Positions 46,413 through 64,000 of a stretch of DNA of 64,000 bases are shown piece by piece. Below the pieces are notes generated by a model. It was not told where the DNA came from. It searched no databases and saw nothing but the letters and a program-made list of their open reading frames with translations. The first letter of the stretch is position 1, and each line of letters starts with the position of its first letter. The position numbers and the translations under genes were made by a program. This stretch comes from Chitinophagales bacterium (lineage in GTDB: Bacteria > Bacteroidota > Bacteroidia > Chitinophagales > JADIYW01). The stretch lies in contig JAMLHJ010000003.1 of NCBI GenBank assembly GCA_023957245.1, forward strand, positions 124,001 through 188,000, written 5' to 3'.

Positions 46413-46427
46413 TCAATAATACGTTAT

Positions 46428-48140: not shown

Positions 48141-48201
48141 TAGACAGACTTTGTTTTATAGTGTGGAATAGGTGTGAATTTGTTGGATAGATTAAATAAA
48201 A

Positions 48202-48235: not shown

Positions 48236-48255
48236 AAAACAAATTGGGGACAGTT

Positions 48256-49458
48256 TTATTTTAAATCTTTTGAAGATTTGTTGAGCAATCTTCTAGCAAT
48301 GATCAATTGTTGTATCTGTTGCGTACCTTCAAAGATATCTAAGATTTTAGAATCTCTAGCCCATTTTTCTAATAATTCTGCTTCAGAATATCCCAAGCTA
48401 GAACAAAGTTCCACACATTTCAAAGTAATTCTACTTCCAATACGTCCAGCTTTAGCTTTGCTAATAGAAGCTTCCATTGAGTTTGGAATTCTATTGTCTG
48501 CCATCCATGCTGCTTTGATAGTTAATAATCTTGCTGCTTCGTAGTCTGCTTCTAGTTTAAGTAATTCTGCTTCTACTGCACTGAGATTGTTGATAGGAGA
48601 GGTATAGTTCAGTTTTATTTTTTCTTTGAGCAACTCTCTTGTTCTTTCCAATGCTGCTTCAGCCACACCTACTGCCATACCAGCAACGAAAGGTCTAGTA
48701 TTGTCAAAAGTTTCCATGACACCTGCAAAACCTTTTTTGACATCTATTTCAGGTGATCCTAATAAGTTACTTGCTGGAACACGACAATTGTCAAATGAGA
48801 TAGCAGCTGTGTCAGATGCACGGATACCCATTTTGGTTTCTAGTCTGACCAATTCCATTCCTGGAGTGCCTTTTTCTACTACAAAAGATTTGATAGCTGC
48901 TCTGCCTAAATTTTTGTCCAAAGAAGCCCATACTACTACAGCATCTGCTCTTTCACCAGCAGTAACAAATATTTTTTGACCGTTTAAAATATAGTGGTCG
49001 CCATCTTTAACAGCAGTTGCAGTGATTGCCGCAGAGTCGGAACCAGCACCTGGTTCAGTAATAGCCATTGCTGCCCACATTTTTCCAAAACGTTTCATCT
49101 GTTCATCATTGGCGACTGCGGCGATTGCTGCATTTCCCAAACCTTGACGAGGGATAGTTAGCATCAACCCTACGTCACCATAGCACATAGTGATGATATT
49201 TAATACACTCGCCATATTGCCGCCATTTTTCACAGTGTCACCACTTGCACTTTTGGCATCACGACTACTAGTTGCTCCACCTAGTGCGCTTCCCGCATCA
49301 TTCATGCCGTCAATTGCAGCAGCAAATAAATCGAGTTCTTTAGGATATTCATGCTCTAAAGCATCGTATTTTCTTGATATAGGTCTAAATACAGTTGTTG
49401 CCGCCATACGTGCAGCTTCAACGACAGGTTTAAATTTTTTTGGTATTTCGAGATTCAT
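48256..49458 (-). CDS. acyl-CoA dehydrogenase (catalytic subunit type)
   Basis: 400 residues, standard acyl-CoA dehydrogenase fold. Visible: FAD/substrate region AMAITEPGAGSDSAAI at about residues 131-146, YILNGQKIFVTAGERAD, FDNTRPFVAGMAVGVAEAA, and the C-terminal ILDIFEGTQQIQQLIIARRLL with the catalytic Glu of the MCAD/SCAD type. The FAD-binding dimer partner residues are intact. It starts 18 bp after the stop of a second, divergent acyl-CoA dehydrogenase that lacks this Glu; a two-subunit enzyme is plausible. Substrate not deducible. Confidence 0.88.
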   Translation of the reverse strand: MNLEIPKKFKPVVEAARMAATTVFRPISRKYDALEHEYPKELDLFAAAIDGMNDAGSALGGATSSRDAKSASGDTVKNGGNMASVLNIITMCYGDVGLMLTIPRQGLGNAAIAAVANDEQMKRFGKMWAAMAITEPGAGSDSAAITATAVKDGDHYILNGQKIFVTAGERADAVVVWASLDKNLGRAAIKSFVVEKGTPGMELVRLETKMGIRASDTAAISFDNCRVPASNLLGSPEIDVKKGFAGVMETFDNTRPFVAGMAVGVAEAALERTRELLKEKIKLNYTSPINNLSAVEAELLKLEADYEAARLLTIKAAWMADNRIPNSMEASISKAKAGRIGSRITLKCVELCSSLGYSEAELLEKWARDSKILDIFEGTQQIQQLIIARRLLNKSSKDLK

Positions 49459-49476
49459 GATTTTTTGCTTTTAAAA

Positions 49477-50787
49477 TTATAGATGCATTGCGTTAAAACA
49501 CCAAGAAACGGCTCTAAGATCTCTATACCAACGTTCAGCTGGGAAGTCTCTCATAAATCCTATTCCTCCAAATAATTGTACGCCGTCATTGCCTATTTCC
49601 ATAGCTCTCTCTTGGCAACAAACTGCTGCGAGATAAGCTTCTTTTTGGAAAGGTTTGCCTTGCTCAGCAAGTGAAGCAGCTCTTTGAGTAAGTATTTCCA
49701 TGGCATCCATTTCAATACGAATATTGGCTATCATGAAAGCTACTGATTGTCTATGTGAAATAGGTTCACCGAATGCTACACGCTCATTAGCATAAGGAAT
49801 CACTTTGTCTAAGACAGCTTTTGCAGTTCCTACCGCTAATGCGCACCATCCTAATCTTGCATAGCTAATAAATGTAGCATAATCAAAGGAATTGTCACCT
49901 AATCTGTTTTCTGCACTTACACTTACATTCTCTAACTTAATATCACCTAATGCAGCAGGTCTGAGTCCCATTGCATTTTGGGAGGTAACAGAAAGTCCTT
50001 CTGAGGCAGATTCAACTATAAATAGTGCTGGACCTTCTCCTTGTACATCAGCCGCAATAATGAATAGTTCGCTAGAATTTACTAAAGGAACAGAGGCTTT
50101 CGCACCGTTTAAGATATAATTTCCTCCTTGTTTGACTGCTTTTGTAGATAATACAAATGGATCAAATAATGCTGTCGGTTCATTTATCGCAATTACTGCT
50201 GAAAGAGGTTGAGATTCATCTAAAAATGAAGGAATATATTTTTCTTGTTGAGATGCATTGCCCCATTGAGTGATAGCATTAAGGGCATTGATAGGAGCAA
50301 GTAATGCAACTGCCATACCTAAATCACCATAAGCTAATTCTTGTGCAATAATCATCTGAGTAACAGTAGCTTTCTCTGTAAGAATTCCACCTAAGGATTC
50401 TGGTGCTGAATAATAAGGCAAGCCTAATGCGTTGAATTCCTTGACGATTTCATCAGGAATCTTACACTCAACATTGATGTGTTCAGCTTGATTTCTCATA
50501 AATTGAGAAGCAAATTGCTGAATAGTTTGTTGAATCATTTGTTGCTCTTCAGAAAGGTTTAAATCAAATAAATCTGATTTTTTGACATTTTCTGGTCTTT
50601 GGATGGCTTGGCTATTTCCTGATTTTGGAAATACACGTGAAGCTTTTTTGGAAAGATTGATACTTTGGAAAGTGCCTTGATAGGTGATTTTTTCCACCCA
50701 TTTGCGCAATCCTAATGAAGTACCAACTTTGCTGTCTAATACGTTGTTGAATGCAACAAACATTTTAGCTAAAGGAGTTTCATTCAT
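49477..50787 (-). CDS. acyl-CoA dehydrogenase-like subunit lacking the catalytic Glu
   Basis: 436 residues, with an extra ~70-residue basic N-terminal extension before the acyl-CoA dehydrogenase fold (DLNLSEEQQMIQQTIQQFASQ). The FAD region VIAINEPTALFDPF lacks the usual T-E-P-x-G-S-D pattern. The C-terminus GGIGFMRDFPAERWYRDLRAV is conserved, but the following EGT-x-x-I-Q with the catalytic Glu is replaced by SWCFNAMHL and the protein ends there. The alternative Glu position of the isovaleryl type (E-R-L before the second helical bundle) reads A-R-L. So it is probably inactive alone and a partner of the downstream gene. First gene of the pair. Confidence 0.8.
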   Translation of the reverse strand: MNETPLAKMFVAFNNVLDSKVGTSLGLRKWVEKITYQGTFQSINLSKKASRVFPKSGNSQAIQRPENVKKSDLFDLNLSEEQQMIQQTIQQFASQFMRNQAEHINVECKIPDEIVKEFNALGLPYYSAPESLGGILTEKATVTQMIIAQELAYGDLGMAVALLAPINALNAITQWGNASQQEKYIPSFLDESQPLSAVIAINEPTALFDPFVLSTKAVKQGGNYILNGAKASVPLVNSSELFIIAADVQGEGPALFIVESASEGLSVTSQNAMGLRPAALGDIKLENVSVSAENRLGDNSFDYATFISYARLGWCALAVGTAKAVLDKVIPYANERVAFGEPISHRQSVAFMIANIRIEMDAMEILTQRAASLAEQGKPFQKEAYLAAVCCQERAMEIGNDGVQLFGGIGFMRDFPAERWYRDLRAVSWCFNAMHL

Positions 50788-50887
50788 GGTTTTTGAATAT
50801 GATATTTAATTTGTGTTTAAAATTCGACCAAATATAATGCATGCATTGTAATTATTGTATAGCATTATTAAATTTATCAAGAAATAT

Positions 50888-50926
50888 CTTAAAAAACAAA
50901 GAAGCCTTCATTTTATAGAAGGCTTC
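50888..50926 (-). terminator. Rho-independent terminator of the beta-helix gene
   Basis: GAAGCCTTC at 50901-50909 and GAAGGCTTC at 50918-50926 form a perfect 9-bp stem with an 8-base loop. On the minus strand it is followed by TTTGTTTTTT (50888-50900). It lies 48 bp after the stop of the gene at 50974. Confidence 0.85.
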
Positions 50927-50973
50927 CATATTATTTGCCCTTTTAACGGACTAGCGTAGTGTTCACGTCAAAT

Positions 50974-52971
50974 CTAATGGTTTATAATGATTTTATCACT
51001 ATAGTTTTGTATTTTTCCTGATATTTTAACAAAATATATTCCTGCTACATTAATATTGATAAGCTTTTCATTATAAATAGTGGTATAATCCATTGATTGA
51101 TTATATATAATCTTTCCATTTATATCTGTAATAATTATTTGGTAGTTATCTTTAGGTAGGTCTTGAAGTTGAATATTGAATTGCCCAGAGCTAGGATTTG
51201 GGAAAATTTTTAACTTAATTTCTTTTTCATTTGGCAATATAGTACTTACTAAATCATTTCCATCACAATCTTGATCAATCCCATCATTGGGAATTTCTTC
51301 TGCTCCTGGGTAAATTGCTGGATTCGTATCATCACAATCTAAAGAGTTTGCTACATATCCTGAAGGTTGCTCACAGGAATAAACAAATTGATTGATATCG
51401 CCAAATAAATCGGAGTCATTGTCTTTGTACCAAATCGTTTTTATAATTTCATTTTTAACTCTCAATTCTTCATTGTATAATAGTGGCGCACCATTTTCCC
51501 ATCTGATTTCAGCAGGTATTTTTGTGCTATTATAAGGGTAGGGTGTGCCTAGATTGGGCCATGAGCCATTATTCCACCACGCAGGAGCAGTGCATAGGTA
51601 ATAAGATTTTTTTTCAAGATTTCCAGTTCCTGCTGGTATAAATGAATTAGCTCCTTTCACTCTATTGCCATATTGAAAATTATCAGTTCCAGTTAGAGTA
51701 TATAAGCCTTTAGCATTTGCGGTATTGGTGATATCATTTCCTATGATATTTGTAGAATTTGCAGAGTTGGGATTCATGAAAAATCCATATCCTGAAAGTT
51801 TGTTTCTAAAAGCGGTGTTGTAAGAGCCGTTTTTGCCATGACTATCATCAATGACTATTTGTTGTACAGCATTGCCTTCGAATAGATTGGCATAAGGATA
51901 ATTGCCGTGAAGAACTATTTCTCCAGCACTATTGGAAGGTGAAAGGATTACGCCTGTCCAATAAGGATTGAGAGAATGATTGTATGCAATTACGTTTCCA
52001 TTGGAGCCCGCTTGAAATAATACAGAATGTCTTAAATTATTGAAAACATTATTTTCTATCAAACATTCATTTGTAGAGTATTCAAGCATAATGCCATAGC
52101 CTTTTCCTCCATTGCCATAACTATGAGCATGATGAAAGTACGAACCTCTCACAGTAATATTAGAGCAATAACTCAGGTTGAGGTGAGAAAGGTTGGTCTT
52201 ATTACTTTCTACGCCTATTACCCAGGAATTGACAGCTCTACTGAACAGCATATTACTATTTATATCATTGGCAACATCTTGTCTTTCTATATAAAGATTT
52301 TCAATTCCAACATATTTTTTGGGGCGAATGACTCTCAATCTTGGTCCTGTAGAAATAGCATGAGCTCTTCTTATTTGACTATTGAAAAACAGAGAATCTC
52401 CTTTTATAGCTTTAATTTGTAGGATTTGCCCAGCTGTTTTATACGCCCAATAATCATTCATCAATGAACTGTCATTTCCCACTAAATGAACCCATTGTCC
52501 AACTTCCAATTCTTCAGTTGAATGAAGAATAGCAAAGTCTTGATGAATTTCTAAGGGTTGAGCAATCCATTTTTCCATATTGACTTGCGTGCCGACTACA
52601 AGAATGGCATTTCTTACGGCTCCACCAAAATTAAAGAGTAATCTTGTGCTTGTACCTTCACCTTTGATGATGATACTGTCTTTTGAAATATTTATACTAT
52701 TATTAAATAGATAGTTGCCACTAGGAAATAAGATAGTTGTTCCTGCTTTTGCTGCTGCTATTGCACTTTTGAATGCCGCTACATTATCTTTTGAACCATC
52801 ATTTGATCCTCCGTAATCTAAAATATTGAGTGTGTTTGAAAATTGAGGTATATCTGTTTGCACTCCGGCAATAGACCAGTCCACTAATCTATCGGCATTG
52901 ATTTCTTGAGCAGATAATGGAGGAAGGATGTTTAGAAAAAGAGAGAATAGAAAAAGAGAATATTTTGTCAT
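50974..52971 (-). CDS. secreted right-handed beta-helix protein with MopE-type metal motif and T9SS sorting domain
   Basis: 665 residues from the ATG at 52971 (signal MTKYSLFLFSLFLNILPPLSAQ); ATG at 53010 is less likely. N-terminal pectate-lyase-superfamily segment NILDYGGSNDGSKDNVAAFK, then parallel beta-helix coils (NLSYCSNITVRGSYFHHAHS, NECLIENNVFNNLRHS). Near residue 570 the DCDDTNPAIYPGAEEIPNDG ... DQDCDG stretch matches the MopE/PF11617-type Ca- or Cu-binding motif. The end (KIFPNPSSGQFNIQL ... AGIYFVKISG ... DKIIINH) is a type A T9SS sorting domain. Probably a surface polysaccharide-active or adhesive protein; no catalytic residues identified. Confidence 0.75.
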   Translation of the reverse strand: MTKYSLFLFSLFLNILPPLSAQEINADRLVDWSIAGVQTDIPQFSNTLNILDYGGSNDGSKDNVAAFKSAIAAAKAGTTILFPSGNYLFNNSINISKDSIIIKGEGTSTRLLFNFGGAVRNAILVVGTQVNMEKWIAQPLEIHQDFAILHSTEELEVGQWVHLVGNDSSLMNDYWAYKTAGQILQIKAIKGDSLFFNSQIRRAHAISTGPRLRVIRPKKYVGIENLYIERQDVANDINSNMLFSRAVNSWVIGVESNKTNLSHLNLSYCSNITVRGSYFHHAHSYGNGGKGYGIMLEYSTNECLIENNVFNNLRHSVLFQAGSNGNVIAYNHSLNPYWTGVILSPSNSAGEIVLHGNYPYANLFEGNAVQQIVIDDSHGKNGSYNTAFRNKLSGYGFFMNPNSANSTNIIGNDITNTANAKGLYTLTGTDNFQYGNRVKGANSFIPAGTGNLEKKSYYLCTAPAWWNNGSWPNLGTPYPYNSTKIPAEIRWENGAPLLYNEELRVKNEIIKTIWYKDNDSDLFGDINQFVYSCEQPSGYVANSLDCDDTNPAIYPGAEEIPNDGIDQDCDGNDLVSTILPNEKEIKLKIFPNPSSGQFNIQLQDLPKDNYQIIITDINGKIIYNQSMDYTTIYNEKLININVAGIYFVKISGKIQNYSDKIIINH

Positions 52972-53055
52972 ATTTTTAAATATAGAAATTTGTTTGATTT
53001 TTTCAATCATTTATGCATTTTCATTTTCATAATAATATTCTCAGTTAAAAATTTT

Positions 53056-53221
53056 CTTGACTATAATATCATCGCCTTCACTACTAAATCTTCTGTCTAA
53101 AAATAACTTTAAAAGCATAAATGGAATGATTGTTATGATATTTAAAATTTCTTTTGAATTGATATAGTTTATCTCTTTAAATAATATATACCAACTCAAT
53201 AAAACGCCTAATTGTCGCATC
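53056..53221 (-). pseudogene. internally deleted copy of the DUF6498-like gene
   Basis: Bases 53056-53167 match 60420-60535, the 3' part of the intact minus-strand gene at 60404-61015, and 53171-53215 match about 60851-60897 of the same gene. The intervening ~310 bp are missing. Same orientation as the intact copy, which lies on the other side of the condensin/HNH island. Confidence 0.75.
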
Positions 53222-53256
53222 CTCTGAGGAGTTATTTTCTTTTTAACTCAGCAGAG
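53222..53256. other. long imperfect hairpin at the island edge
   Basis: Arms 53222-53234 and 53244-53256 (CTCTGAGGAGTTA / TAACTCAGCAGAG, two mismatches) with a T-rich loop and TATTTTTT after it on the plus strand. It begins where similarity of the DUF6498 remnant ends. Could be a plus-strand terminator or a recombination/structural site. The remaining 53257-53447 shows no gene. Confidence 0.5.
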
Positions 53257-53447
53257 TATTTTTTCAAATTTCTACTTGGTACATTGGCTATAAGTTAGCT
53301 CCTGAATGACTTTGTGCCTCTCTTCATTGATACAATATTTACCTGCTTTTTAAATAATTTATTTTTCTATGTTTTATACTTTTTTGTGTAAACCTAGTTT
53401 AGGGTGGGGTAATTCTAAAATCATAAACTTGAGTTCTCAAGTAAAGC

Positions 53448-53789
53448 TTACATTTCTTCAATTATTAAGTTCAAAACATCGGTTTCAGCGTTACAATTAT
53501 CTATATTAAAAACAATTTTTTCAGTTAAAACTTCCAGATTCTCATTGGGTAGGATCAAAAACTCATTGTAATTTTCGTGTTGTAACACAATGTACTCAAA
53601 CCCATTCTTTTTAAATAAACTGTTCGTTTCAATTGTTGAGTTTTCATTCAACGTCAATGCTAATCCTTTTTTATCCATTAAATTGAAATAAGTAGCAAAA
53701 AAATCAAAATTTCCTTTGTTGGAAATTTGAGTTTTGGTAATTATCTCGCTTCGGGTTAGGTCCTTTGTCCAATATTTATTTATTTTCAT
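53448..53789 (-). CDS. small unknown protein, last gene of the condensin operon
   Basis: 113 residues, no signal peptide, no recognised family. A basic N-terminus (KINKYWTKDLTRSEIITKTQ) is followed by a mixed alpha/beta domain with EYIVLQHENYNEFLILPNE and an acidic end. It follows the JetB/MksE-like gene by 25 bp on the same strand, so it is probably co-transcribed and may be an accessory to the condensin system. Start ATG; a 191-bp non-coding stretch follows to the island edge. Confidence 0.6.
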   Translation of the reverse strand: MKINKYWTKDLTRSEIITKTQISNKGNFDFFATYFNLMDKKGLALTLNENSTIETNSLFKKNGFEYIVLQHENYNEFLILPNENLEVLTEKIVFNIDNCNAETDVLNLIIEEM

Positions 53790-53814
53790 AAATTATTATT
53801 TTAATAATCAGTTA

Positions 53815-54333
53815 CTACTTTTGAGTTACTTCTTCTTTTATTAAGTCTTTCGCAAAGTCTATAAATAGTTTGTGTGCTTTGGTAAATGAATATCTGTCGT
53901 TGCCTTGTTTTACAGCAATGTTTCTTTTTACCATAGTTCCAAGATGTCTTTTCAAACTTTCATCATTTTTTAATTGATTATTAGCTTTGATTACGTCTGA
54001 CCAAGATGAATTATTGAAATATTCAAGAATTTCGTCAATATGAAATTCTGAATAATTGAGTTCTTCTAAAAAGTTCTTTCCGTCTTTGTCGAGTTCATAG
54101 CATAAAATGGAAAAGAAAATGGAAATGTCTCTTGATGTATTTTCGTTTGTCTCGCTGGAAACAAGATAATAAAAGTCTTGGTTTCCGATAAGTTCAAAAT
54201 CAAATGAGTTTTCAAAAAACGTGGTATAAAAATCTTCGTTTTTTTTGATGGTTTCAAACAACAAGTCCTCAACTGTAATGAATTTTCCTTCCATTAGAGA
54301 AGTTACTATTTCTTTATGTTTATCTGGATACAT
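53815..54333 (-). CDS. jetB: MukE/MksE-like condensin subunit (JetB-type)
   Basis: 172 residues, no signal peptide. The N-terminal half is acidic and helical; the C-terminal half carries a winged-helix-like segment (SSWSDVIKANNQLKNDESLK, LGTMVKRNIAVKQGNDRYSF) of the sort found in MukE, MksE and JetB (DUF4194-like). In MukBEF/Wadjet complexes this subunit binds the kleisin and contacts DNA. Its start overlaps the 3' end of the kleisin-like gene by 14 bp. Assignment rests on size, pattern and position; primary-sequence similarity in this family is low. Confidence 0.6.
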   Translation of the reverse strand: MYPDKHKEIVTSLMEGKFITVEDLLFETIKKNEDFYTTFFENSFDFELIGNQDFYYLVSSETNENTSRDISIFFSILCYELDKDGKNFLEELNYSEFHIDEILEYFNNSSWSDVIKANNQLKNDESLKRHLGTMVKRNIAVKQGNDRYSFTKAHKLFIDFAKDLIKEEVTQK

Positions 54334-55531
54334 CTTCTTGTTTTTTGATTGTTAGTTTTGGCATTATTAGTTCTGAATTTTCATTTGAGATAGAAATGTT
54401 TTTTCCATCTTTGTTTACTGAAATTTCGTAATCTTCTTCAAAAATCAAACTTGTTACCATAAAGAAATTGTCAAACGAAAAATTCTCGTTTTCTTGTTTG
54501 ATAGAACTTTCGCACCATTTGAAAAAATCATCTACGGGCAAATTTTTGTTCAATATTTCTTTATATTTTGATTTGTCAAAAAGCCAATCATTGGTTTGTT
54601 CGGAATCTTCGACAACAAATACTTCTTCTTCGTGTTTAAACTGTTCAAAGTATTCTTTCGTGTTTTCATACACAAATTTGTTATAGATATTATCACGAGT
54701 TGAAACGAAAATGCGTGGTGGTTCAATTTCTTTGTAACAATTTCCATTGGTTAAATAAAAATGAAAACCTCGCAAATATTGGCTTTCGGTCTTTATTCGT
54801 TCAATTAAAGGCAATAATTCATTTGTGAGTGTTACAGATTGTAAATTCAAATCTTTTGCAACTTGGCGAAGCAAGTGATACAATTTTTCAAATTCTCGTC
54901 TTATGCTTTCGTCTGCGTAATCAAATCGTTTTACGTTAGTAAATTGCGAAACATTCAGCAATTCATTGTAAATAGACTGACTATGATTTACATCTAAAAT
55001 TGTGTTGAGTGGCGAAATGTAATTTTCAATCAAATACCTTGCTTTATGTATTTTCTCTTGATAGTCAATTTTCTTATTGTTTGCTTTCAGTTCTCTTGAT
55101 TCTGTCAATAAACTTTTAGTGTTATTTACAACTGCATTTGTAAACTTTTTAATTTGATTTGATAAGGCTTCAATTCTTTCCAATAAAATGTTCTTATCAT
55201 CATTTATTCCCTCTTTAATTTTTAGAAATAAAGTTCTGATTGCTTGACCGAAATGCTCAATTTCTTCGGGTAAAAGTGGTTTGAATTGTTGATGTATAAA
55301 TTCAAAAAGAACGAAATACGGTTGGTTAAATGCAAAGTCGTCATTTTGTTCAATCAAAATTTGATATTCTGTTAGTTGTTCTCGAATGTTTTTGTCGTAA
55401 TTTTCTAAACAGATATTCAGAGATTCTTTTGTAATGATGTCGTTCTTAACCTGCAAGTCAAAAAGGTCTCGTAGCAAATCGTAATGACTTGCCATAAACT
55501 GCAAAATTGATTTTGGTTCGGACTTAATCAT
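54320..55531 (-). CDS. jetA: kleisin-like condensin subunit (JetA/MksF-type)
   Basis: 403 residues, no signal peptide. Helical N-terminus with a winged-helix-like start (SILQFMASHYDLLRDLFDLQ), then a coiled-coil-prone region (residues about 110-165), a second helical bundle and a C-terminal beta-rich wing domain (FFMVTSLIFEEDYEISVN). This size and layout fit MksF/JetA kleisins (DUF3375-like), which bridge the SMC heads. It overlaps the Toprim gene by 8 bp upstream and the MksE-like gene by 14 bp downstream, so the proteins are translationally coupled. Function assigned mostly by operon context. Confidence 0.6.
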   Translation of the reverse strand: MIKSEPKSILQFMASHYDLLRDLFDLQVKNDIITKESLNICLENYDKNIREQLTEYQILIEQNDDFAFNQPYFVLFEFIHQQFKPLLPEEIEHFGQAIRTLFLKIKEGINDDKNILLERIEALSNQIKKFTNAVVNNTKSLLTESRELKANNKKIDYQEKIHKARYLIENYISPLNTILDVNHSQSIYNELLNVSQFTNVKRFDYADESIRREFEKLYHLLRQVAKDLNLQSVTLTNELLPLIERIKTESQYLRGFHFYLTNGNCYKEIEPPRIFVSTRDNIYNKFVYENTKEYFEQFKHEEEVFVVEDSEQTNDWLFDKSKYKEILNKNLPVDDFFKWCESSIKQENENFSFDNFFMVTSLIFEEDYEISVNKDGKNISISNENSELIMPKLTIKKQEDVSR

Positions 55532-56318
55532 ATTTCCAATACTGTTGCTCTAAAAATCTGTTGTTTCTTATTATGCTTTCTCTAATTTTAATTACGTTGC
55601 TGTCTGAACTTTGCTTAATTCTATTGGTCATTTCGGCTTTGTTTCCTTTCAGGCTTTGAGAGTATTTCTCGAAAAGTTCGTCATAGTTTTCAGGAATGTA
55701 TAATTGGGCGAAGTCAAACACTTCTTTGATTCTTAGAAATTCTTCAAGTCCGTTAAAATCATAATCAACAAAAACGAGTAAGTTATTTGTAGCAAGACAA
55801 CTAAGTGATTCTTTTCCAATTCGTCCGTATTTATGAAGAAAAACAAAGTCATTTCCTAATAGTTTTTCAGCAACTAAAAATGTGTCTAAATTTTCAACAA
55901 TACAAATACGTTTTGCTTTAATTTTTTCTGCGTTGCAAGCAAATAATTGAAAATTCCTTGTGTAACTTTCCAAACACAATTTATTACCATTTATGATAAT
56001 TGTTTCAAAACCTCTTAGCATAAAAATTGGTGTAGAACCCGTTTTTTGAATTTTAGAGTTTCTGAATTTTCTAACATTGTCCGATTTGTCTTTAACTTCA
56101 ATATCTTCAGGAAAGTGCGTTTTAAAGAAATTTTTAAACTCCGTTGTTTTGTTTACTTCATAGCGAAACCCTCTGCCTGATTTTACTTTTTCTAGAATCA
56201 AAGAAGAAACCAAACCTTTGAAGAGAGATGAATTCAAAACAGTTTTAGGAATTTCCTTTTCTGTAAGAAAACTATTCTCTATAAATTTCTTATATGTTCT
56301 AAAATCTGTTTGGTTCAC
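55524..56318 (-). CDS. jetD: Toprim nuclease subunit (JetD/MksG-type)
   Basis: 264 residues. The C-terminal half has the Toprim signature: Glu142 in RICIVENLDTFL and Asp185/Asp187 in LLVFVDYDFNGLEEFLRI, matching the topoisomerase-VI-A-like JetD/MksG fold (DUF2220) that cleaves plasmid DNA in Wadjet. The N-terminal half has a winged-helix-like region. It is shorter than usual JetD (about 350-400 residues), lacking part of the N-terminal arm domain. Start codon GTG at 56318, overlapping the SMC gene's stop by 4 bp (GTGA). All metal-binding acids are present, so it should be active. Confidence 0.72.
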   Translation of the reverse strand: MNQTDFRTYKKFIENSFLTEKEIPKTVLNSSLFKGLVSSLILEKVKSGRGFRYEVNKTTEFKNFFKTHFPEDIEVKDKSDNVRKFRNSKIQKTGSTPIFMLRGFETIIINGNKLCLESYTRNFQLFACNAEKIKAKRICIVENLDTFLVAEKLLGNDFVFLHKYGRIGKESLSCLATNNLLVFVDYDFNGLEEFLRIKEVFDFAQLYIPENYDELFEKYSQSLKGNKAEMTNRIKQSSDSNVIKIRESIIRNNRFLEQQYWKYD

Positions 56319-58975
56319 GACACTTTCGGTTTACGATAAATTACATTTCCGTTATTTTCGCTCAAAACATTTTTTCCTTTGCTTCTTCTTACTAAATAGT
56401 ATTTGTCAAATCCGTCATAAGGATGCAATGGTGCGGCTGATATTGGAACAAAATTATTTTCCTTGCAAAAATTCAAAATTTCAATTCTGTTGGCTTCGTC
56501 AATTGTACCGATTTCATCAACGAAAATCACAATTTTGTTTTCTTCGTCATTGATTACAATTTGGTGGATAATTGACATAATAATCACCATTCTAATCATT
56601 TTATCTGTTCCGTCCGATTCAATTTGATTTCTTAAATCAACGACTTTGTGTTGTCCTTTTTTATCGAGATGTAATTTAATGTCAAAAAGTTCTTTAAAAT
56701 CAATTACAGACTGGTTATCCAAATACTTGTTCAAAATATTCAGATTTTCCGATTGGTCGTCAAAGATGAGTTCAGAAGTTAAGTCTCTAATATCCATTAT
56801 CTTCTTCAAATCCTTGATTAGATTTTCGTTTGGAATGATTTCAATATTCAAAGAATCAATGTCAGATATTTTAATTTTTCGGATTTTTGAATTGAATTGA
56901 TTTTTGATGAAGGCTTCAAACTCTTGAAATTTTGAATAAAGTGTTTTACACGGAATTGAAAATTGCGTTGAAATGTTTTTTAGCAATGTATCAATGCTTT
57001 TTTGCTTGTCTTCAAGCGTTGCCAGTTCTGAATCCAGATGTTTGATAAATTCGTCTTCCGAAGCAAAAACGGTTTCCGTTTTTGTTTTTAGATTTTCAAA
57101 TAATCGTTCTTTGCTATTTTTGGTGTTATCTCGTTCAGTTGAGTTTCTTTCAAAGTTTTTGAAAAGGTTGTCGAGCGTTTCGTTTGTTTGATATTCGATT
57201 GGAATAATTCCCGAGTGTTCAATTTTTACTTTCCAATTTTGAATTTCTTTGATACGATTTTCTGCTTTATTAATGTCTTCTAAAAGAATATTTATAGCCT
57301 CATTTATTCTCGAAATGAGTTCCGTTGTTTGTTTTAATTCTTTTTCTGTTTCATCTCGTTCTTGAAATAGATTTTTTAGTTTTTCTTCTAATTTTGCTAA
57401 ATCTTTTTCAAGTTCCGGTAACGATTCTAATTCTTCGATTTTCTTTTCCGTTTCTTTGATTTTTGCTTGAACAGAAGAAAGTTCAGAATGATATTTTTCT
57501 AAATCCTTTGCAATTGGCAAAAGTTTTTCGTTGTTCGTTTTTTCCTTGATTGAAGTTTCTCGTTGTAGTTTTAAATCATCAATAGACGGAATTGGTTTCC
57601 CTTTTAAATTTTGGGGAATTTTAATTGCTCCGTCAAAGATTTTCATAACATCAGCTAATTGTTCTATTTCTGATTGAATATTTTCTTTCGGGAGTGCAGT
57701 AATGGAATCGGAAAGAATTGCGTATAGCAATTCTTTGTCTTTCACATTTTTGCTTATTTGATGAATAAGTAGATTCGAGTAAGTTTCAATTTGTATGTCA
57801 AGTTTTGAAATTTCTTTGGTTAGTTTTGAAATCTTGTTTTCTAAATCTTCGCTATTTAGGTTTTGATTTTCAATTTGAGTTAATCGACTTTCAATGTCTT
57901 TTCTTTGTATATCTAAATTGCTAAATGACTGTTTTAAAAAGTCTATTCCCTCATAAGATTTTATCTTACTTATTTTTTCAGCAAGTGATTCTTTAGTTGA
58001 GCCTTTTTGAGTAATGGTTGCTTTTAATTCCCCAATAGTTTGATTCAGGTTATTTTGCTTTGGAATTAAGTCTTCGCTTAATTGTGTTTTGTTTTTATCG
58101 CGTTCACTTTTTTTTGCTAAAAGCCTTGTGCTAATATCAATATTCACAGATGAATAAAGGGTATCAAACGCAAAAACGATTTCCGATAAAATTTGATTTT
58201 TAGCTTTATATTGATTGACTAATTCCTTGAAGTCGGAAAAACTTTTTTGAATACTTCTAATTACTTTGATTTCTCGATTGTGCTTCAAAAGGGTTTGAAT
58301 GTCCTTTTGATTTTTCTTAGAAAATTCAACTTGTTCATTTTCCTTATTGTCAGCAATAATCAAAGATTCTTTTAATGTCTTGTTGTCAATAAGTTTAGAG
58401 TTTATTAGGTAACGATAAATTTTAGAAAAGTTGTTGCTGATTTCTCTTTGGTCTTGCGATGCACCTTCGTTTAGCCAAACAACGCCATTGTTTTTCTTTC
58501 CTTTTTGATAAACAAAGTTGAAAAGGTCTCGTCTGTTTGAGTATTTGCTGTATTCTACACCTGACGAAGAAAGATAGGCAAGCAAAGAATCAAATTTCTT
58601 AATTTTTTGTCCTTCCGATGTCTGTTCAAAATATTGTTCTTCTTTGTAGTCGCTATCAATTTTATAATAATCTAAACTACCTTCTGCGTTTTTCTTGACC
58701 AAAATGCAGTAATATCGTTTTTTGAAGATTTCAAAAATTATGTAACTTGAATTTATTGAAGGGAAATAGTGATTAAATGTTGTTTTATCACCTGTTCTGC
58801 TACCGCTAAAAGTCATTTGTTTTCCGTCAATGATATACAGAAAGTTTAAAGCATAAATCAAGGTGCTTTTCCCAATGTTATTCGGCCCAACTATTTGTAA
58901 TGAATCGCAGTTGCCTAATTCAATGTCTGCTTTTGAGTAAATATCCGAATTAAGTATTACAAGTCGTTTTAGCAT
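56315..58975 (-). CDS. jetC: SMC-like ATPase of Wadjet/MksB type (JetC)
   Basis: 886 residues. Walker A GPNNIGKST at residues 30-38, a head half with FSGSRTGDKTTFNHYFP, two long antiparallel coiled-coil arms (about 240-420 and 480-650, rich in K/E heptads), a small hinge region between them (near IKIPQNLKGKPIPS), and the second head half with a signature-like IESDGTDKMIRMVIIMS and Walker B VIFVDEIGTIDEAN (Asp820, Glu821). SbcC/RecN-like ATPases differ in order and hinge. Arms are shorter than in E. coli MukB. With its neighbours it makes a DNA loop-extruding complex that detects small circular DNA; that role is inferred from the family. Confidence 0.75.
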   Translation of the reverse strand: MLKRLVILNSDIYSKADIELGNCDSLQIVGPNNIGKSTLIYALNFLYIIDGKQMTFSGSRTGDKTTFNHYFPSINSSYIIFEIFKKRYYCILVKKNAEGSLDYYKIDSDYKEEQYFEQTSEGQKIKKFDSLLAYLSSSGVEYSKYSNRRDLFNFVYQKGKKNNGVVWLNEGASQDQREISNNFSKIYRYLINSKLIDNKTLKESLIIADNKENEQVEFSKKNQKDIQTLLKHNREIKVIRSIQKSFSDFKELVNQYKAKNQILSEIVFAFDTLYSSVNIDISTRLLAKKSERDKNKTQLSEDLIPKQNNLNQTIGELKATITQKGSTKESLAEKISKIKSYEGIDFLKQSFSNLDIQRKDIESRLTQIENQNLNSEDLENKISKLTKEISKLDIQIETYSNLLIHQISKNVKDKELLYAILSDSITALPKENIQSEIEQLADVMKIFDGAIKIPQNLKGKPIPSIDDLKLQRETSIKEKTNNEKLLPIAKDLEKYHSELSSVQAKIKETEKKIEELESLPELEKDLAKLEEKLKNLFQERDETEKELKQTTELISRINEAINILLEDINKAENRIKEIQNWKVKIEHSGIIPIEYQTNETLDNLFKNFERNSTERDNTKNSKERLFENLKTKTETVFASEDEFIKHLDSELATLEDKQKSIDTLLKNISTQFSIPCKTLYSKFQEFEAFIKNQFNSKIRKIKISDIDSLNIEIIPNENLIKDLKKIMDIRDLTSELIFDDQSENLNILNKYLDNQSVIDFKELFDIKLHLDKKGQHKVVDLRNQIESDGTDKMIRMVIIMSIIHQIVINDEENKIVIFVDEIGTIDEANRIEILNFCKENNFVPISAAPLHPYDGFDKYYLVRRSKGKNVLSENNGNVIYRKPKVS

Positions 58976-58989
58976 ACAAAAAAAAATTA

Positions 58990-59769
58990 TTAGTCTATTC
59001 TTTTTTCAAAAATTTCGTCCAAATGATACTGCAAAAATTCCTTTTTGGGCATATATCGCTGTGGCATTTCAAGTTTTGATTTGTCCAAATGCGAAAAATA
59101 TTTGTCATAATAATCGTTTTGCTGTTTCTTTTTCAGATATGATGAAATCAGTATTTCATACTTTTCATTCAATCCAATCAAACCTTTATCAAAAGCCTTG
59201 TCGTAGAGTGCCGATAAACAAATTCCGTTTTCTGGATTTAATCGTTCATCTTCGTTTTTTGACCACGGAATTATATGACTTGCAAAAAGTAATTCAGGTA
59301 TGTCAATCCCAGTAATTGCACATTTTCCAGAATAGTTTGCTATAACAATCTGCCTAAAAACGTTTTGATTTATTCTTGTTTTTACTTCTCGGATTTTAGT
59401 TTCACCTTTCAAATCTTTTATGTCAAAAAGCAATTCATTAAATTTGGTTTCTATTGTTTGATGTTCTTTTTCTGCAAGAATTTGTTCACTTAAAAAAATC
59501 AGTTCTTCCTGATTATTAAAAAACTCATCCCAAATTGGCTGACATTGTTTTATTCCACCAACCATTCCTTTAACTCCCCTGTTTTGATGATAAGGGTCGC
59601 AAGCTGCAAAATTTGTAAGGCGAATAGCTATTGAATTTACTGTTCTACCCAAAAGATTTGCCATATCAATAATTTCAGACGTTTTTGTGTGCATTTTGCC
59701 AAAAGGCAATTTCAAATACAGATTAAAAACCAATATTAGTTCATCTTTTGTCCAGAGTTTTCTTTCCAT
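58990..59769 (-). CDS. HNH endonuclease, restriction-enzyme type
   Basis: 259 residues. The N-terminal 70 residues (KLWTKDELILVFNLYLKLPFG, GRTVNSIAIRLTNFAACDP) form a helix-turn-helix-like region shared with uncharacterised HNH proteins. The nuclease core is residues 145-200: GKCAITG, ASHIIPWS with His165, NPENGICL with Asn181 and ALYDKAFDKGLI with Asp194, typical of HNH_2 restriction enzymes. All expected residues are present. It begins 11 bp after a broken methyltransferase gene, suggesting a former restriction-modification pair; 14 bp downstream the SMC gene starts. If active, loss of its methylase would need some other protection. Confidence 0.85.
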   Translation of the reverse strand: MERKLWTKDELILVFNLYLKLPFGKMHTKTSEIIDMANLLGRTVNSIAIRLTNFAACDPYHQNRGVKGMVGGIKQCQPIWDEFFNNQEELIFLSEQILAEKEHQTIETKFNELLFDIKDLKGETKIREVKTRINQNVFRQIVIANYSGKCAITGIDIPELLFASHIIPWSKNEDERLNPENGICLSALYDKAFDKGLIGLNEKYEILISSYLKKKQQNDYYDKYFSHLDKSKLEMPQRYMPKKEFLQYHLDEIFEKRID

Positions 59770-59780
59770 AAATTATTGAT

Positions 59781-60038
59781 TTAAGCAGCCATTAAAACTG
59801 GCACAGCAATACCTATTTGTTTTAAAGTAGTCGTCTTACTACCTTCATAAAAATAATCATAATAGATTTTTTCTTTTCCATTTTCTTTCAACCAATGATA
59901 AGCGGCTCTTGTTTTCAATGTGTCGCAAGCATCTTTGTTCATTTCAACGTGAGCGATAGGATTGAATCCTGCACGGATAAACCCTTCTGAAAGTCCACCT
60001 GCACCAGCAAATAAATCTATGTAATTAAGTTTTTTCAT
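59781..60038 (-). pseudogene. cytosine-C5 DNA methyltransferase with internal deletion
   Basis: 85 codons. Residues 5-20 are methyltransferase motif I (YIDLFAGAGGLSEGF) and 30-42 motif II (HVEMNKDACDTLK). Residues 72-84 (LKQIGIAVPVLMA) match motif X, normally at the very C-terminus 250 or more residues later. Motifs IV (PCQ catalytic loop), VI and VIII and the target-recognition domain are missing, yet the frame is intact. Such a protein cannot methylate DNA. It is the first recognisable gene of the island on the minus strand. Confidence 0.85.
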
Positions 60039-60403
60039 TTACAATATTGTTTTCATAAGTACTTTGAAAAATTATACACAGCTCTTTTGGTTTTTGAAGA
60101 ATTGGTTCGTGTGTTGGCAAAAATCAAATGTACCTGTCATTTGTGGGTTGTGTAATTTCATCATTCTTATTGTTTTGTTTGGGTCTGCTTGTTTGACTTG
60201 CAGGTAATACCAGCCTGTATAAAATCTTTTACAAACTGTTTCAAATATAGTTAATCTAGTGTATTTTAAAGTGTCAAAAATACAATAAATAATACCTTCA
60301 ATTATTGATATTGACCACCATTAAGTTCAGTTTTTTAGTTTGAAGAGTTATATTCAGACTTTATCATTTATGACAAAATAATATCCCTTATATCTCATCT
60401 TAA
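60039..60403. other. non-coding spacer upstream of the island
   Basis: No gene seen in 365 bp. It contains a candidate minus-strand promoter (60242-60278) and otherwise unremarkable AT-rich sequence with a slightly richer part at 60095-60200. Confidence 0.45.
60242..60278 (-). promoter_or_regulatory. possible promoter of the methyltransferase-HNH-condensin operon
   Basis: On the minus strand TATATTTG (plus CAAATATA, 60242-60249) is an exact TAnnTTTG box and TTTG (plus CAAA, 60275-60278) lies 25 bp upstream. The spacing is longer than ideal. It would give a leader of about 200 bases. Confidence 0.35.
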
Positions 60404-61015
60404 TCAATAGTTTTTTTTGACTGCTATATCATCATTTTCACTTCTAAATCCTCTATCCAAAAATATCTTTAAAAGCATAAATGGAATGATTATTATGATA
60501 TTTGAAATTTCTTTTGAATTGATATAATCAGCTATACCTGTCACTTGAATCATACCACCCAGAATAATAGAGATATGTAAAATAATATGTCTTCTACTAA
60601 ATGCTACTAATGTTTTCTCTTGATATCCATTGTTGATGATATAGAAAATATATTGAACAGCAAAAGCGAAAATACTTAAATTGAAATATATATTTTTAAA
60701 AGAAAATGTAGTGGCATTAATTACTACTGTTTCAAGATTTTTGTCTTTGATAATCGGAATTAGACCAAAAAGAACCAGAATAAATACACCATAAATAAAC
60801 ATCACAAAAAATGCTTGCCACGATGCAAGGATTGAATTTATCCAGTTCTTATCTCTCTTAATAATATATGCCAACTCGATGACTTGTCTTATCAATGCCT
60901 CCATCCAAAAGAGATAAAAGATATAGAAAATGGTAACTTCCTTTTTGTAAATTCCCAATATTGTGAATGACAGAAAAGTAATGATATGGATAAGTCGATT
61001 TTGTTGCTGGGTCAT
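60404..61015 (-). CDS. DUF6498-like multi-pass membrane protein
   Basis: 203 residues from the ATG at 61015 (an in-frame TTG at 61024 would add three). Five to six hydrophobic helices (IITFLSFTILGIY, FFVMFIYGVFILVLFGLIP, IYFNLSIFAFAVQYIFYII, HIILHISIILGGMIQV, IIIIIPFMLLKIFLD) and the segment FYLFWMEALIRQVIE, which recalls DUF6498 proteins. Function unknown. A -7 box (minus-strand TATTTTTG, 61022-61029) lies 6 bp before the ATG. A deleted copy lies at 53056-53221, on the other side of the defence island. Confidence 0.6.
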   Translation of the reverse strand: MTQQQNRLIHIITFLSFTILGIYKKEVTIFYIFYLFWMEALIRQVIELAYIIKRDKNWINSILASWQAFFVMFIYGVFILVLFGLIPIIKDKNLETVVINATTFSFKNIYFNLSIFAFAVQYIFYIINNGYQEKTLVAFSRRHIILHISIILGGMIQVTGIADYINSKEISNIIIIIPFMLLKIFLDRGFRSENDDIAVKKNY

Positions 61016-61184
61016 AGTATTCAAAAATAATATTATCTATATATAATTTTTATAGCTGTAGAGAAATAATTTGTAAGAATATTCTTTGGTTTTTATTTCT
61101 AAAGAGTACTTTAAATAATTTGGCATGTTAATTGAAATTTTTAAAATTGAAATTACCTTTAACACAAAATTTAAAAAGAAAGAA

Positions 61185-61604
61185 ATGAAAAAATGGTTGA
61201 TGACTTTATTGGTTGTGGTTTCGACAGGAATGACAGTATTTGCAGCTAATAAAAATGATGTATTAGGTGTATGGTTGGTGCAGGACAAGGATGCAAAAAT
61301 TGAATTGTATCTGACAAAAGATGGTAATCTACAAGGGAAATGTATATGGCATAAAATCCCAGGTCTAAAAGATGTGGACAATAAAGACCCTAAAGAAAGA
61401 GATAAACCTGTTGTAGGTAAAGTGTTTGTTTGGGATTTCGATTGGGATGCTGAAAAAGGAGAGTGGGTCAATGGTAAGGTGTATAAAGCGGGAAAAACTT
61501 ATTGTGGTAGAATTAAATTGAATCCTGATGGCACTTTGTTTTTGAAAGGAAATATTTGTAATACATTTCTAGGAAAGACTAATACTTGGACTAGAGTGAA
61601 GTAA
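61185..61604 (+). CDS. DUF2147 secreted protein
   Basis: 139 residues from the ATG at 61185, which starts a good signal peptide (MKKWLMTLLVVVSTGMTVFAA); the frame is open upstream to 61125 but that part is not signal-like. The mature part matches DUF2147: DVLGVWLVQDKDAKIELY, GKCIWHK, VGKVFVWDFDWDAEKGEWVN and KVYKAGKTYCGRIKLNPDGT. Periplasmic beta-barrel-like domain of unknown function. Own terminator follows. Confidence 0.85.
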   Translation: MKKWLMTLLVVVSTGMTVFAANKNDVLGVWLVQDKDAKIELYLTKDGNLQGKCIWHKIPGLKDVDNKDPKERDKPVVGKVFVWDFDWDAEKGEWVNGKVYKAGKTYCGRIKLNPDGTLFLKGNICNTFLGKTNTWTRVK

Positions 61605-61634
61605 GTTTTTTTGATTTTTAGCTCTTAATATTAT

Positions 61635-61664
61635 AATGGTTCTAGAGATAGAGCCATTTTTTAT
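61635..61664 (+). terminator. Rho-independent terminator after the DUF2147 gene
   Basis: Stem AATGGTTCTA (61635-61644) / TAGAGCCATT (61649-61658), one G-T pair, 4-base loop, followed by a T-run; 31 bp after the stop. Confidence 0.75.
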
Positions 61665-61723
61665 TTATAAAATTTCCTTCTCAATATTAGTTTAAGTTAT
61701 TTTTTGTTAAGTAATAGTTATGA

Positions 61724-61747
61724 TTAGTTCGTTACTAACCGAACTAA
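61724..61747. promoter_or_regulatory. palindromic operator-like site before the regulator gene
   Basis: TTAGTTCG (61724-61731) and CGAACTAA (61740-61747) form a perfect 8-bp inverted repeat with an 8-bp spacer. It covers the expected -33 region of the promoter whose -7 box is at 61761-61768, a position suited to autorepression by the GbsR/MarR-type product. Confidence 0.6.
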
Positions 61748-61760
61748 CAAAAGTTTGATT

Positions 61761-61768
61761 TATATTTG
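61761..61768 (+). promoter_or_regulatory. -7 promoter box (TATATTTG) of the efflux operon
   Basis: Exact TAnnTTTG match 31 bp before the regulator ATG at 61800, just downstream of the palindrome at 61724-61747. Confidence 0.55.
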
Positions 61769-61799
61769 TGCTTCAAATCTTAGAAAAGCTGTAAATATA

Positions 61800-62276
61800 A
61801 TGGAAGCTCAAAAGAAGGTGTTTGTAGAAAGGGTAGGAGTCCGTACCGAAATGATGGGGTATTCTCCATTGGCAGGAAGGATTATTGGTGCATTATTATT
61901 GTCCGAACCTCCCTATATGACATTTGATGCATTATGTGAATATCTGAATGCAAGTAAAAGTTCGATCAGTACCAATCTTCATTTTTTGATGAAAGAAGGT
62001 ACTGGCTTGGTAGAGTATTTTACTTTACCTGGAGATAGAAAAAGATATTTCAAAATCAGTATTGATAATTGGTTGAGACATATTAAAGAAATGCCTAAAG
62101 AATTTCAGAACAGTAATGACTTATTGGGAGAAATATTAGGTTATCGAGAGGCTAATCAATTAGATGGTGAATTTTCTCATTCGATTAAAAAGTTACTTTC
62201 TTTTTATGAATTTATGTTGGATAAATTGCCCTCTTTAATTGAAGAATGGGAAGAAAAAATAATTTTAGAAAAATAG
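61800..62276 (+). CDS. GbsR/MarR-type winged-helix transcriptional regulator
   Basis: 158 residues from the ATG at 61800; the frame is open to 61755 but that part overlaps the promoter box. N-terminal winged helix: PLAGRIIGALLLSEPPYMTF, then the recognition helix region LCEYLNASKSSISTNLHFLM, then the wing FTLPGDRKRYFKIS, the pattern of GbsR-like regulators. C-terminal half is a helical dimerisation region. It is 10 bp upstream of a tolC-type gene in a probable regulator-efflux operon with a palindromic site in front, so it likely controls the pump. Confidence 0.8.
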   Translation: MEAQKKVFVERVGVRTEMMGYSPLAGRIIGALLLSEPPYMTFDALCEYLNASKSSISTNLHFLMKEGTGLVEYFTLPGDRKRYFKISIDNWLRHIKEMPKEFQNSNDLLGEILGYREANQLDGEFSHSIKKLLSFYEFMLDKLPSLIEEWEEKIILEK

Positions 62277-62286
62277 TTTTTATTAT

Positions 62287-63621
62287 ATGACGTGGAAGCG
62301 AATTGCAGTCGTTGCAGCTTTATTTGGAATTGTAAATGTACAGGCTCAAGACTCATTTAACCTCAAATCTTGTGTGGATTATGCTTTGTCCAACAATTTT
62401 GATTTACTAAAAGCAGAGATTCAGCGAGAATCTATTAATTATCAAGTTAAAGAACAGATGAGTAGTGGGCTTCCTCAGATTGCTGGCTATACTTCATTTA
62501 GCGACAATGTTTTGATACCTACACAATTAGTTCCTGGAGAGTTTTTTGGTGGAGCACCTGGCACTTTCCTTCCTGTGAAGTTTGGTGTGCATTATTCAGT
62601 AGCAGCTGGACTTGAATTAAATCAATTATTATTTAGTCAACAATTTTTCAATGGTTTGAAGACAGCTAGAAAAGCCAAAGAGGTTGTAGATGTTTCTGTA
62701 GATCAAGCTAAAGAGCAGGTTGTCTATACAGTTGCCAATTATTATTATCAAGCTCAAGCATTTAAAATTCAATTGAAAATGTTGGAAGATAATTACGATA
62801 GACTATCTAAAATTACTGATATAGCTGAGGTTCAATATAAGAATGATATGATGAGAAAATTGGACTTAGATCAATTGATTGTCAATAAAAAGAATTTGGA
62901 AACATCATTGAATAATGCCAAGATTGGCTACAATCAACAAATGAATGGCTTAAAAATTATTCTAGGAATGGATGTTGAAGATGAACTGACTTTAGTCGAT
63001 GAGGAGATACAAGTGAAGGACAGTGAATATGAAAATATCAAGAAAATAAGTAATAATTTATCTCAGAAAGTCTTACAAACTAAATTGGAGATGTCTGAAT
63101 TGGAATACAAAACCATTAAAGCAGGGTATTATCCTTCTCTACATCTTAATTTTAGTACGAGTATCAATGGTCAGTTTGATAAATTCAATTTTAAAAATGA
63201 AGGCTCTTTCAATAGATATCCTTTTATGATGTTGGGACTGACTCTGAATGTACCCATTTTTGATGGACTAAAGAAAAATAGCCAGTTGAAACAAAAGGCT
63301 TTGGCTATGGAGCAGATGAAGTTTGACCAGCAGAAAACGACTCATCAACTCAATCTTCAGTATCAAAATGCGGTTTACACCATTCAACAGAATAGAAGTA
63401 TCTATGCTTTGCAGAAAGAAAATCTTGGATTTGCCAATCAACTTTATGATGCTGTGAAACATACTTATAATGATGGTATTTCCAATATTACTGAATTAAT
63501 TAATGCTGAAAATAGCTTAAAAGAAGCTCAGAACAATTATCTCAATGCATTGATGAAAATCAAAATTGCAGAACTAGATGAAATGTATATTTCTGGAAAT
63601 ATTAACGAACTCACACAATAA
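62287..63621 (+). CDS. TolC-family outer-membrane efflux protein
   Basis: 444 residues with signal ending NVQAQ. Starts FNLKSCVDYALSNNFDLLKA, a typical TolC/OEP beginning; two repeats of long helical hairpins follow (residues about 100-230 and 300-425) with a beta strand YPSLHLNFSTSI and PFMMLGLTLNVPIFDGLKK between them. Forms the outer-membrane trimeric channel of a tripartite pump. It lies between the regulator and the membrane fusion gene. Confidence 0.92.
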   Translation: MTWKRIAVVAALFGIVNVQAQDSFNLKSCVDYALSNNFDLLKAEIQRESINYQVKEQMSSGLPQIAGYTSFSDNVLIPTQLVPGEFFGGAPGTFLPVKFGVHYSVAAGLELNQLLFSQQFFNGLKTARKAKEVVDVSVDQAKEQVVYTVANYYYQAQAFKIQLKMLEDNYDRLSKITDIAEVQYKNDMMRKLDLDQLIVNKKNLETSLNNAKIGYNQQMNGLKIILGMDVEDELTLVDEEIQVKDSEYENIKKISNNLSQKVLQTKLEMSELEYKTIKAGYYPSLHLNFSTSINGQFDKFNFKNEGSFNRYPFMMLGLTLNVPIFDGLKKNSQLKQKALAMEQMKFDQQKTTHQLNLQYQNAVYTIQQNRSIYALQKENLGFANQLYDAVKHTYNDGISNITELINAENSLKEAQNNYLNALMKIKIAELDEMYISGNINELTQ

Positions 63622-63640
63622 AATTTATAACTCAAATAAC

Positions 63641-64000
63641 ATGAAAAAAATATTAATATCCCTTGCGGTAATTGCAATTGTAGGCTTTATGGCTTTCAAA
63701 TTAAAGTCTAATAAAGAGACAATAGACGCCAATACAAAAGAGGCGCTTAACATTGAAAAATATGATTTTATTCCGGTGAGAGTATATCAGATTGCTCATC
63801 AAAATAATGTTCAATCCGTTGAAGAAATTGGTTCGTTTCAATCTCGTCAGGATTTGACTGTTAGTGCAACAGCGACAGGAAGAATTGTCAATCTCAATGT
63901 TCGTGAAGGTCAATATATCTCCAAAGGTACAGTAATTGCTCGTTTGGATTACGCCGCTTTGGCTGCTCAATTGGCTACATCAAAAGCAGCGATGAGCAAT
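63641..64000 (+). CDS. RND efflux periplasmic adaptor (membrane fusion protein), partial
   Basis: First 120 codons, running off the right edge. N-terminal membrane anchor (MKKILISLAVIAIVGFMAFK), then EEIGSFQSRQDLTVSATATG and the lipoyl half-motif GRIVNLNVREGQYISKGTVI with ARLDYAALAAQLATSKAA leading into the helical hairpin. Starts 19 bp after the TolC gene; the inner-membrane RND transporter is expected next. Confidence 0.9.
   Translation, partial: MKKILISLAVIAIVGFMAFKLKSNKETIDANTKEALNIEKYDFIPVRVYQIAHQNNVQSVEEIGSFQSRQDLTVSATATGRIVNLNVREGQYISKGTVIARLDYAALAAQLATSKAAMSN

What the first reader, a model, noticed from the sequence alone, without database searches (positions are those of the whole stretch)
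53448..58975. Condensin-type plasmid-defence operon (Wadjet/MksBEFG-like) in a permuted order C-D-A-B with a fifth gene
Seen: five overlapping or closely spaced minus-strand genes encoding an SMC-like ATPase with Walker A GPNNIGKST and Walker B VIFVDE, a Toprim protein with Glu142 and Asp185/187, a ~400-residue helical/winged-helix protein, a 172-residue winged-helix protein and a 113-residue unknown. Overlaps are 4, 8 and 14 bp. Known: Wadjet (JetABCD) and MksBEFG have kleisin, MukE-like, SMC and Toprim subunits, usually in order A-B-C-D. Inferred: this is a compact, divergent member; the SMC (886 aa) and Toprim subunit (264 aa) are both shorter than usual.
Basis: partly seen in the sequence, partly recalled or inferred. 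Interest (0 to 1): 0.85.

Follow-up and report, generated by a model that had tools for sequence, protein, structure and literature searches.

The report
Bacteroidota Wadjet with a switchable nuclease
A four-gene DNA-cutting machine that probably destroys foreign plasmids is recurrent in this bacterial phylum, is missed by a standard defence catalogue, and has close relatives without the cutting subunit that look like the chromosome-organising machine of other species.

Summary
The four genes are real and form a conserved operon, SMC ATPase - Toprim nuclease - kleisin - MksE (C-D-A-B). The fifth gene does not belong: in a congener it directly follows an HNH gene, and in the window the four-gene operon sits precisely between the two. 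Named relatives with the same order, sizes and overlaps occur across Bacteroidota. MksE is recognised by Pfam; the Toprim protein is a short JetD/MksG with invariant catalytic residues; the kleisin resembles MukF only by predicted fold. PADLOC gives no JetA or JetB match. Best reading: a compact, divergent Wadjet (plasmid-cutting condensin) in a 10.2-kb accessory island. Unexpectedly, most relatives in a sample of 395 Bacteroidia are three-gene versions without the nuclease. These are core in one genus (25 of 26 good genomes) and occur in genomes without ScpA or ScpB, so they are candidate chromosome condensins there. Presence of the nuclease changed at least five times on the tree, and two congeners differ by it at an orthologous locus. 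No activity is shown; plasmid restriction is inferred from homology. Novelty: a new variant of a known kind, plus a testable switch between condensin and defence.

The parts
56315..58975 (-). SMC ATPase (JetC/MksB-like), 886 aa; Walker A GPNNIGKST, Walker B VIFVDE
   Evidence: Pfam DUF3584 7.6e-14; PADLOC JetC1 weak, 7e-4; Walker residues invariant in 16 relatives
55524..56318 (-). Toprim nuclease (short JetD/MksG-like), 264 aa, GTG start; winged-helix-like N-terminus (1-76) plus Toprim (95-264); E142, D185, D187
   Evidence: JetD_C matched by 13 of 20 family members, best 4e-6; top fold matches MksG 8b7f Z 12.4 and JetD 7til Z 11.5; catalytic residues invariant in 20
54320..55531 (-). putative kleisin (JetA/MksF/MukF-like), 403 aa
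   Evidence: no sequence-family match; Foldseek best hits are MukF chains, E 7e-4; VIA Z about 13 over about 250 residues but tied with unrelated helical proteins; position and co-conservation
53815..54333 (-). MksE/JetB (KITE) subunit, 172 aa
   Evidence: Pfam MksE PF21980 1.8e-22, 80.9 bits against a cut-off of 27
53448..53789 (-). 113-aa unknown; NOT part of the system, belongs to the neighbouring HNH locus
   Evidence: absent beside all operon relatives; directly downstream of HNH in G012 without the operon
58990..59769 (-). HNH endonuclease upstream of the operon (neighbour, not a subunit)
   Evidence: Pfam HNH_2 9e-13; PADLOC HNH 1.8e-86
59781..60038 (-). 85-aa start of a cytosine methyltransferase, truncated (neighbour)
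   Evidence: Pfam DNA_methylase 7.6e-11 over profile 2-43 of 324
51003..61182 (.). 10.2-kb accessory island; empty site of 428 bp in congener G012
   Evidence: window 46000-51002 and 61183-64000 are adjacent in G012:C10

Best explanation
A Bacteroidota-specific, compact Wadjet-type system. SMC dimers joined by the kleisin and MksE load on DNA and extrude it using ATP; when a small circular DNA is fully extruded, the Toprim subunit (a short JetD/MksG) is activated and cuts it, so plasmids are lost while the chromosome is spared. Shown here: the four-gene operon, its conservation, its domains and intact catalytic residues, and its accessory location. Inferred from characterised Wadjet-I/II systems: complex formation, loop extrusion, cleavage and plasmid restriction. 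The same family also exists as a three-gene form without the nuclease, which by its distribution is more likely a chromosome condensin; the nuclease gene behaves as a removable module between SMC and kleisin.
For: MksE by Pfam 1.8e-22 and SMC DUF3584 7.6e-14. The Toprim subunit matches JetD_C in 13 of 20 members and PADLOC JetD1 in 13 of 20; by fold MksG, JetD and Topo VI-A rank first; profile match to the Toprim of an A-B-C-D Bacteroidota operon, E 9.6e-10. E142/D185/D187 invariant. Putative kleisin: MukF tops Foldseek. C-D-A-B order with similar overlaps recurs in every intact relative, and the Toprim tree broadly follows the SMC+kleisin tree (14 of 20 splits shared, distance correlation 0.85). 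Patchy: 1 of 13 genomes of the family; precise presence/absence in an accessory island beside restriction genes; one relative is decayed (L091).
Against: No experiment. The kleisin has no sequence match, and its fold score is tied with unrelated helical bundles. PADLOC JetA/JetB models do not match and PDB profile searches give no JetABC hit. Related nuclease-free operons show that the core can serve another role. Flavobacteriaceae hosts of the Toprim form lack ScpA and mostly have no other MksE, so a chromosomal role there is not excluded.
Confidence: 0.8

Rival explanations
1. A chromosome condensin (MksBEF-like) whose Toprim subunit acts in chromosome topology or repair rather than in defence.
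For: The nuclease-free form is core in a genus (25 of 26 good genomes) and occurs where ScpA and ScpB are missing; the same complex core is shared.
Against: The window genome has ScpA and ScpB of its own; the operon is absent from the 12 other genomes of the family and lies in an accessory island.
Confidence: 0.1
2. A Wadjet-like system whose natural target is circularised phage genomes or integrative elements rather than plasmids.
For: Cutting by size and circularity would not discriminate between element types; the operon lies beside restriction genes.
Against: Known Wadjets act chiefly on plasmids (PMC10586767, PMC12287153); nothing here separates the targets.
Confidence: 0.15
3. A five-gene system in which the 113-aa protein is a new subunit.
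For: Same strand, 25 bp downstream of MksE.
Against: No homologue beside any relative of the operon; in G012 it follows HNH directly without the operon.
Confidence: 0.03
4. A Lamassu, RecN or SbcC type SMC system.
For: Weak LmuB and SbcC scores for the SMC.
Against: Those matches run largely over the coiled coil; an MksE subunit and a JetD-type Toprim are present, and no LmuA or LmuC match was seen.
Confidence: 0.02

Closest known systems
Wadjet type I (JetABCD / MksBEFG)
   Same: SMC, putative kleisin, MukE-like and Toprim subunits in one operon; the Toprim fold matches MksG and JetD best
   Different: order C-D-A-B, not A-B-C-D; SMC 886 aa against 1097-1146 in PADLOC JetC1 models; Toprim 264 aa against about 370 in solved JetD/MksG, shorter at the N-terminus; PADLOC JetA/JetB models do not match
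Wadjet types II and III
   Same: same four activities; the putative kleisin also resembles Neobacillus vireti Wadjet-II JetA by fold (Z about 10)
   Different: types II/III tend to have longer coiled coils (PMC12647877); this SMC is short
MksBEF condensin without MksG (as in Pseudomonas aeruginosa PAO1, from own knowledge)
   Same: the nuclease-free Bacteroidota relatives have this three-subunit make-up
   Different: order SMC-kleisin-MksE; some nuclease-bearing sister operons share 74-82% identity in the core subunits
A-B-C-D operon with a short Toprim in Bacteroidota (L122, L121)
   Same: short Toprim (284-290 aa), MksE-positive
   Different: order A-B-C-D, SMC 1227 aa in L122, extra downstream genes of 409 and 1031 aa; may be a further lineage

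Membership tests
Wadjet / MksBEFG (broad sense) | SMC ATPase with Walker A and B of the MukB/JetC kind | tested here: met
   DUF3584 7.6e-14; Walker residues invariant
Wadjet / MksBEFG (broad sense) | KITE subunit (MksE/JetB) | tested here: met
   PF21980 1.8e-22, above cut-off
Wadjet / MksBEFG (broad sense) | kleisin of the MukF/JetA kind | tested here: inconclusive
   MukF ranks first in Foldseek, E 7e-4; VIA Z about 13 tied with helical bundles; no sequence match
Wadjet / MksBEFG (broad sense) | Toprim nuclease JetD/MksG with catalytic Glu and Asp-x-Asp | tested here: met
Wadjet / MksBEFG (broad sense) | cuts circular DNA and restricts plasmids | not testable with these tools
   needs a bench assay
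Described Wadjet types I-III as modelled in PADLOC | JetA and JetB profiles match | tested here: not met
   no JetA match in 20 kleisins; JetB none for the window protein, best 0.003 in one relative
Wadjet type I (MksBEFG) | gene order kleisin - MksE - SMC - Toprim | tested here: not met
   SMC - Toprim - kleisin - MksE in the window and all intact relatives
MksBEF condensin (no nuclease) | no Toprim subunit | tested here: not met
   the window operon carries it; most relatives among L031-L048 lack it
Lamassu | LmuA effector with LmuB SMC (LmuC in most) | tested here: not met
   no LmuA or LmuC match; LmuB only weak

The most novel reading that the evidence does not exclude
One protein family alternates between a chromosome condensin (three genes, core, replacing Smc-ScpAB in several Bacteroidia lineages) and a plasmid-cutting defence system (four genes), by gain or loss of a single nuclease gene between SMC and kleisin, even at the same chromosomal locus in congeners.
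Probability: 0.45. Interest if true: 0.8.

Novelty: new variant of a known kind. Interest (0 to 1): 0.58.

Why it matters
It adds a compact Wadjet variant that PADLOC models miss. Its nuclease-free sisters are candidate condensins for Bacteroidia without a recognised one; a 2023 Hi-C study reported no known condensin in two gut Bacteroidetes (PMC10197239), though whether those species carry this family was not tested here. Congeners that differ by the nuclease gene make the proposed link between defence and chromosome-organising SMC complexes (PMC10586767) testable with natural pairs.

Tried and rejected
Fifth gene as a subunit: rejected. Lamassu/RecN/SbcC: rejected on the partner genes. Carriage on phages or plasmids: no phage hit for the Toprim, only partial, distant plasmid hits for the SMC, no viral-contig relative for MksE. 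Nuclease remnants in Toprim-less operons: none by tblastn. A loss-only history (ancestral nuclease, repeated loss): disfavoured on this tree (lnL -29.8 against -18.3 reversible and -23.1 gain-only), but sampling is biased towards Toprim-positive loci and the root rests on a distant outgroup, so the direction stays open. Avoidance between MksE and ScpA over 198 Bacteroidia: 6 with both, 12 expected, Fisher p 0.02, not corrected for relatedness, so weak. PDB sequence-profile searches found no JetABC relative. Profile comparison of the kleisin with the first gene of an A-B-C-D Bacteroidota operon gave nothing.

Full report
What is there. The 172-aa product is MksE by Pfam (PF21980, 1.8e-22); the 886-aa product is a DUF3584/MukB-like SMC (7.6e-14); the 264-aa product scores weakly with JetD_C and PADLOC JetD1. 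The 403-aa product has no sequence-family match.

Relatives. An SMC search found a match in 49 of 395 sampled Bacteroidia and in only 1 of 13 genomes of the window's own family, the window genome itself. A scan of named genomes with the Toprim profile gave 24 loci, all titled Bacteroidota groups except one MAG labelled Oceanicaulis, probably misbinned. Every intact one has SMC-Toprim-kleisin-MksE, about 886/264/403/175 aa, often with 4 or 1, 8 and 14-bp overlaps. The closest are 84-86% identical in the Toprim (L071-L074, including Algoriphagus terrigena). L091 is a decayed copy: its Toprim frame is broken and its MksE match has an internal stop.

Subunits. Twenty Toprim proteins keep E142, D185, D187 and a C-terminal F-x-E-Q motif. 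The AlphaFold model (pLDDT 86) matches C. glutamicum MksG (Z 12.4), P. aeruginosa JetD (Z 11.5) and Topo VI-A over residues 95-264; residues 1-76 match winged-helix proteins. It is thus a short JetD, about 100 residues shorter than the solved proteins (365-374 residues). The kleisin model is weaker (pLDDT 78, pTM 0.45); MukF leads in Foldseek, but Z values tie with unrelated helical bundles, so the kleisin name rests on fold, position and co-conservation. The SMC is short (886 aa against 1097-1361 in the PADLOC models); reading a hinge near 410-490 and arms of about 200 residues is my inference.

The fifth gene. In congener G012 the HNH gene and the 113-aa gene's homologue are neighbours 6 bp apart, and the whole four-gene operon is missing between them. 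The homology breakpoints are window 53802 and 59001. So the operon entered, or left, an HNH-113-aa locus. A larger empty site is also seen: window 51003-61182 is replaced by 428 bp in G012:C10. The window genome keeps Smc-ScpAB (ScpA, ScpB). Together these say accessory cargo beside restriction genes.

The nuclease-free sisters. Most sampled relatives are SMC-kleisin-MksE only, with no Toprim remnant. In genus g36 the kleisin is present in 25 of 26 good genomes. None of 42 genomes with the nuclease-free form had ScpA (count assembled from the two lists, with G232 included, which carries both forms), and none of 16 tested had ScpB. These genomes fall into about nine families, so this is not 42 independent cases. 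By distribution this is the best candidate condensin of those lineages. Toprim-positive hosts are mixed: Cytophagales-type hosts keep ScpA, the Flavobacteriaceae ones do not.

Switching. On an SMC+kleisin tree of 54 rows, nuclease presence needs 6 changes, at least 5 forced by well-supported branches. Toprim and core trees broadly agree (14 of 20 splits, r 0.85). Two congeners, G321 and G362 (without), share the locus: five collinear genes upstream and two downstream, SMC 82%, kleisin 81%, MksE 74% identical; G321 has the Toprim gene between SMC and kleisin and G362 has 24 bp there. G362 also has one extra 434-aa ORF upstream of the SMC. Whether this is gain or loss is not resolved.

Comparison. 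Wadjet is described in three types by operon organisation and domains (PMC10586767, PMC12647877); types II and III tend to longer coiled coils. The mks order is F-E-B-G (PMC10123090). I found no description of this order or family in the searchable papers, but most subscription papers and all preprints are not held. PADLOC misses JetA and JetB here, as it also does for an A-B-C-D Bacteroidota operon, so under-annotation may be general in this phylum. I therefore call it a new variant of Wadjet in the broad sense, not a member of types I-III as modelled.

Mechanism and confidence. Extrusion followed by cutting of small circles is inferred from the characterised systems. Confidence 0.8 that the four genes form a Wadjet-like DNA-cutting complex; 0.45 that the family truly alternates between condensin and defence.

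Noticed in passing
window 53248-53403: Dispersed repeat of about 156 bp next to the 113-aa gene; seven near full-length copies at 76-79% identity in congener G012, plus partial ones.
   Followed up: no
window 53052-53166 and 60412-60526: 115-nt direct repeats, 88% identical, flanking the operon plus HNH locus; the left copy looks like a decayed piece of the 206-aa gene at 60404-61024.
   Followed up: partly
window 58990-60038: HNH endonuclease (weak match to a phosphorothioate-DNA restriction enzyme model) with a truncated cytosine methyltransferase; G012 has the HNH and 113-aa genes plus similar DNA upstream.
   Followed up: partly
L122:1015-11622 and L121: A-B-C-D Mks/Wadjet-like operon of Bacteroidota with a short Toprim (290 aa in L122), 1227-aa SMC, and extra downstream genes of 409 and 1031 aa (the 409-aa one weakly like PADLOC PDC-S60); in L121 the SMC region is split into ORFs of 551 and 594 aa.
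   Followed up: partly
G232 (=G450): One genome with four MksE genes, including both the nuclease-bearing and nuclease-free forms of this family and an A-B-C-D operon.
   Followed up: no
class sample of 198 Bacteroidia: 103 genomes have neither MksE nor ScpA by Pfam, so still other condensins or none may serve there.
   Followed up: no
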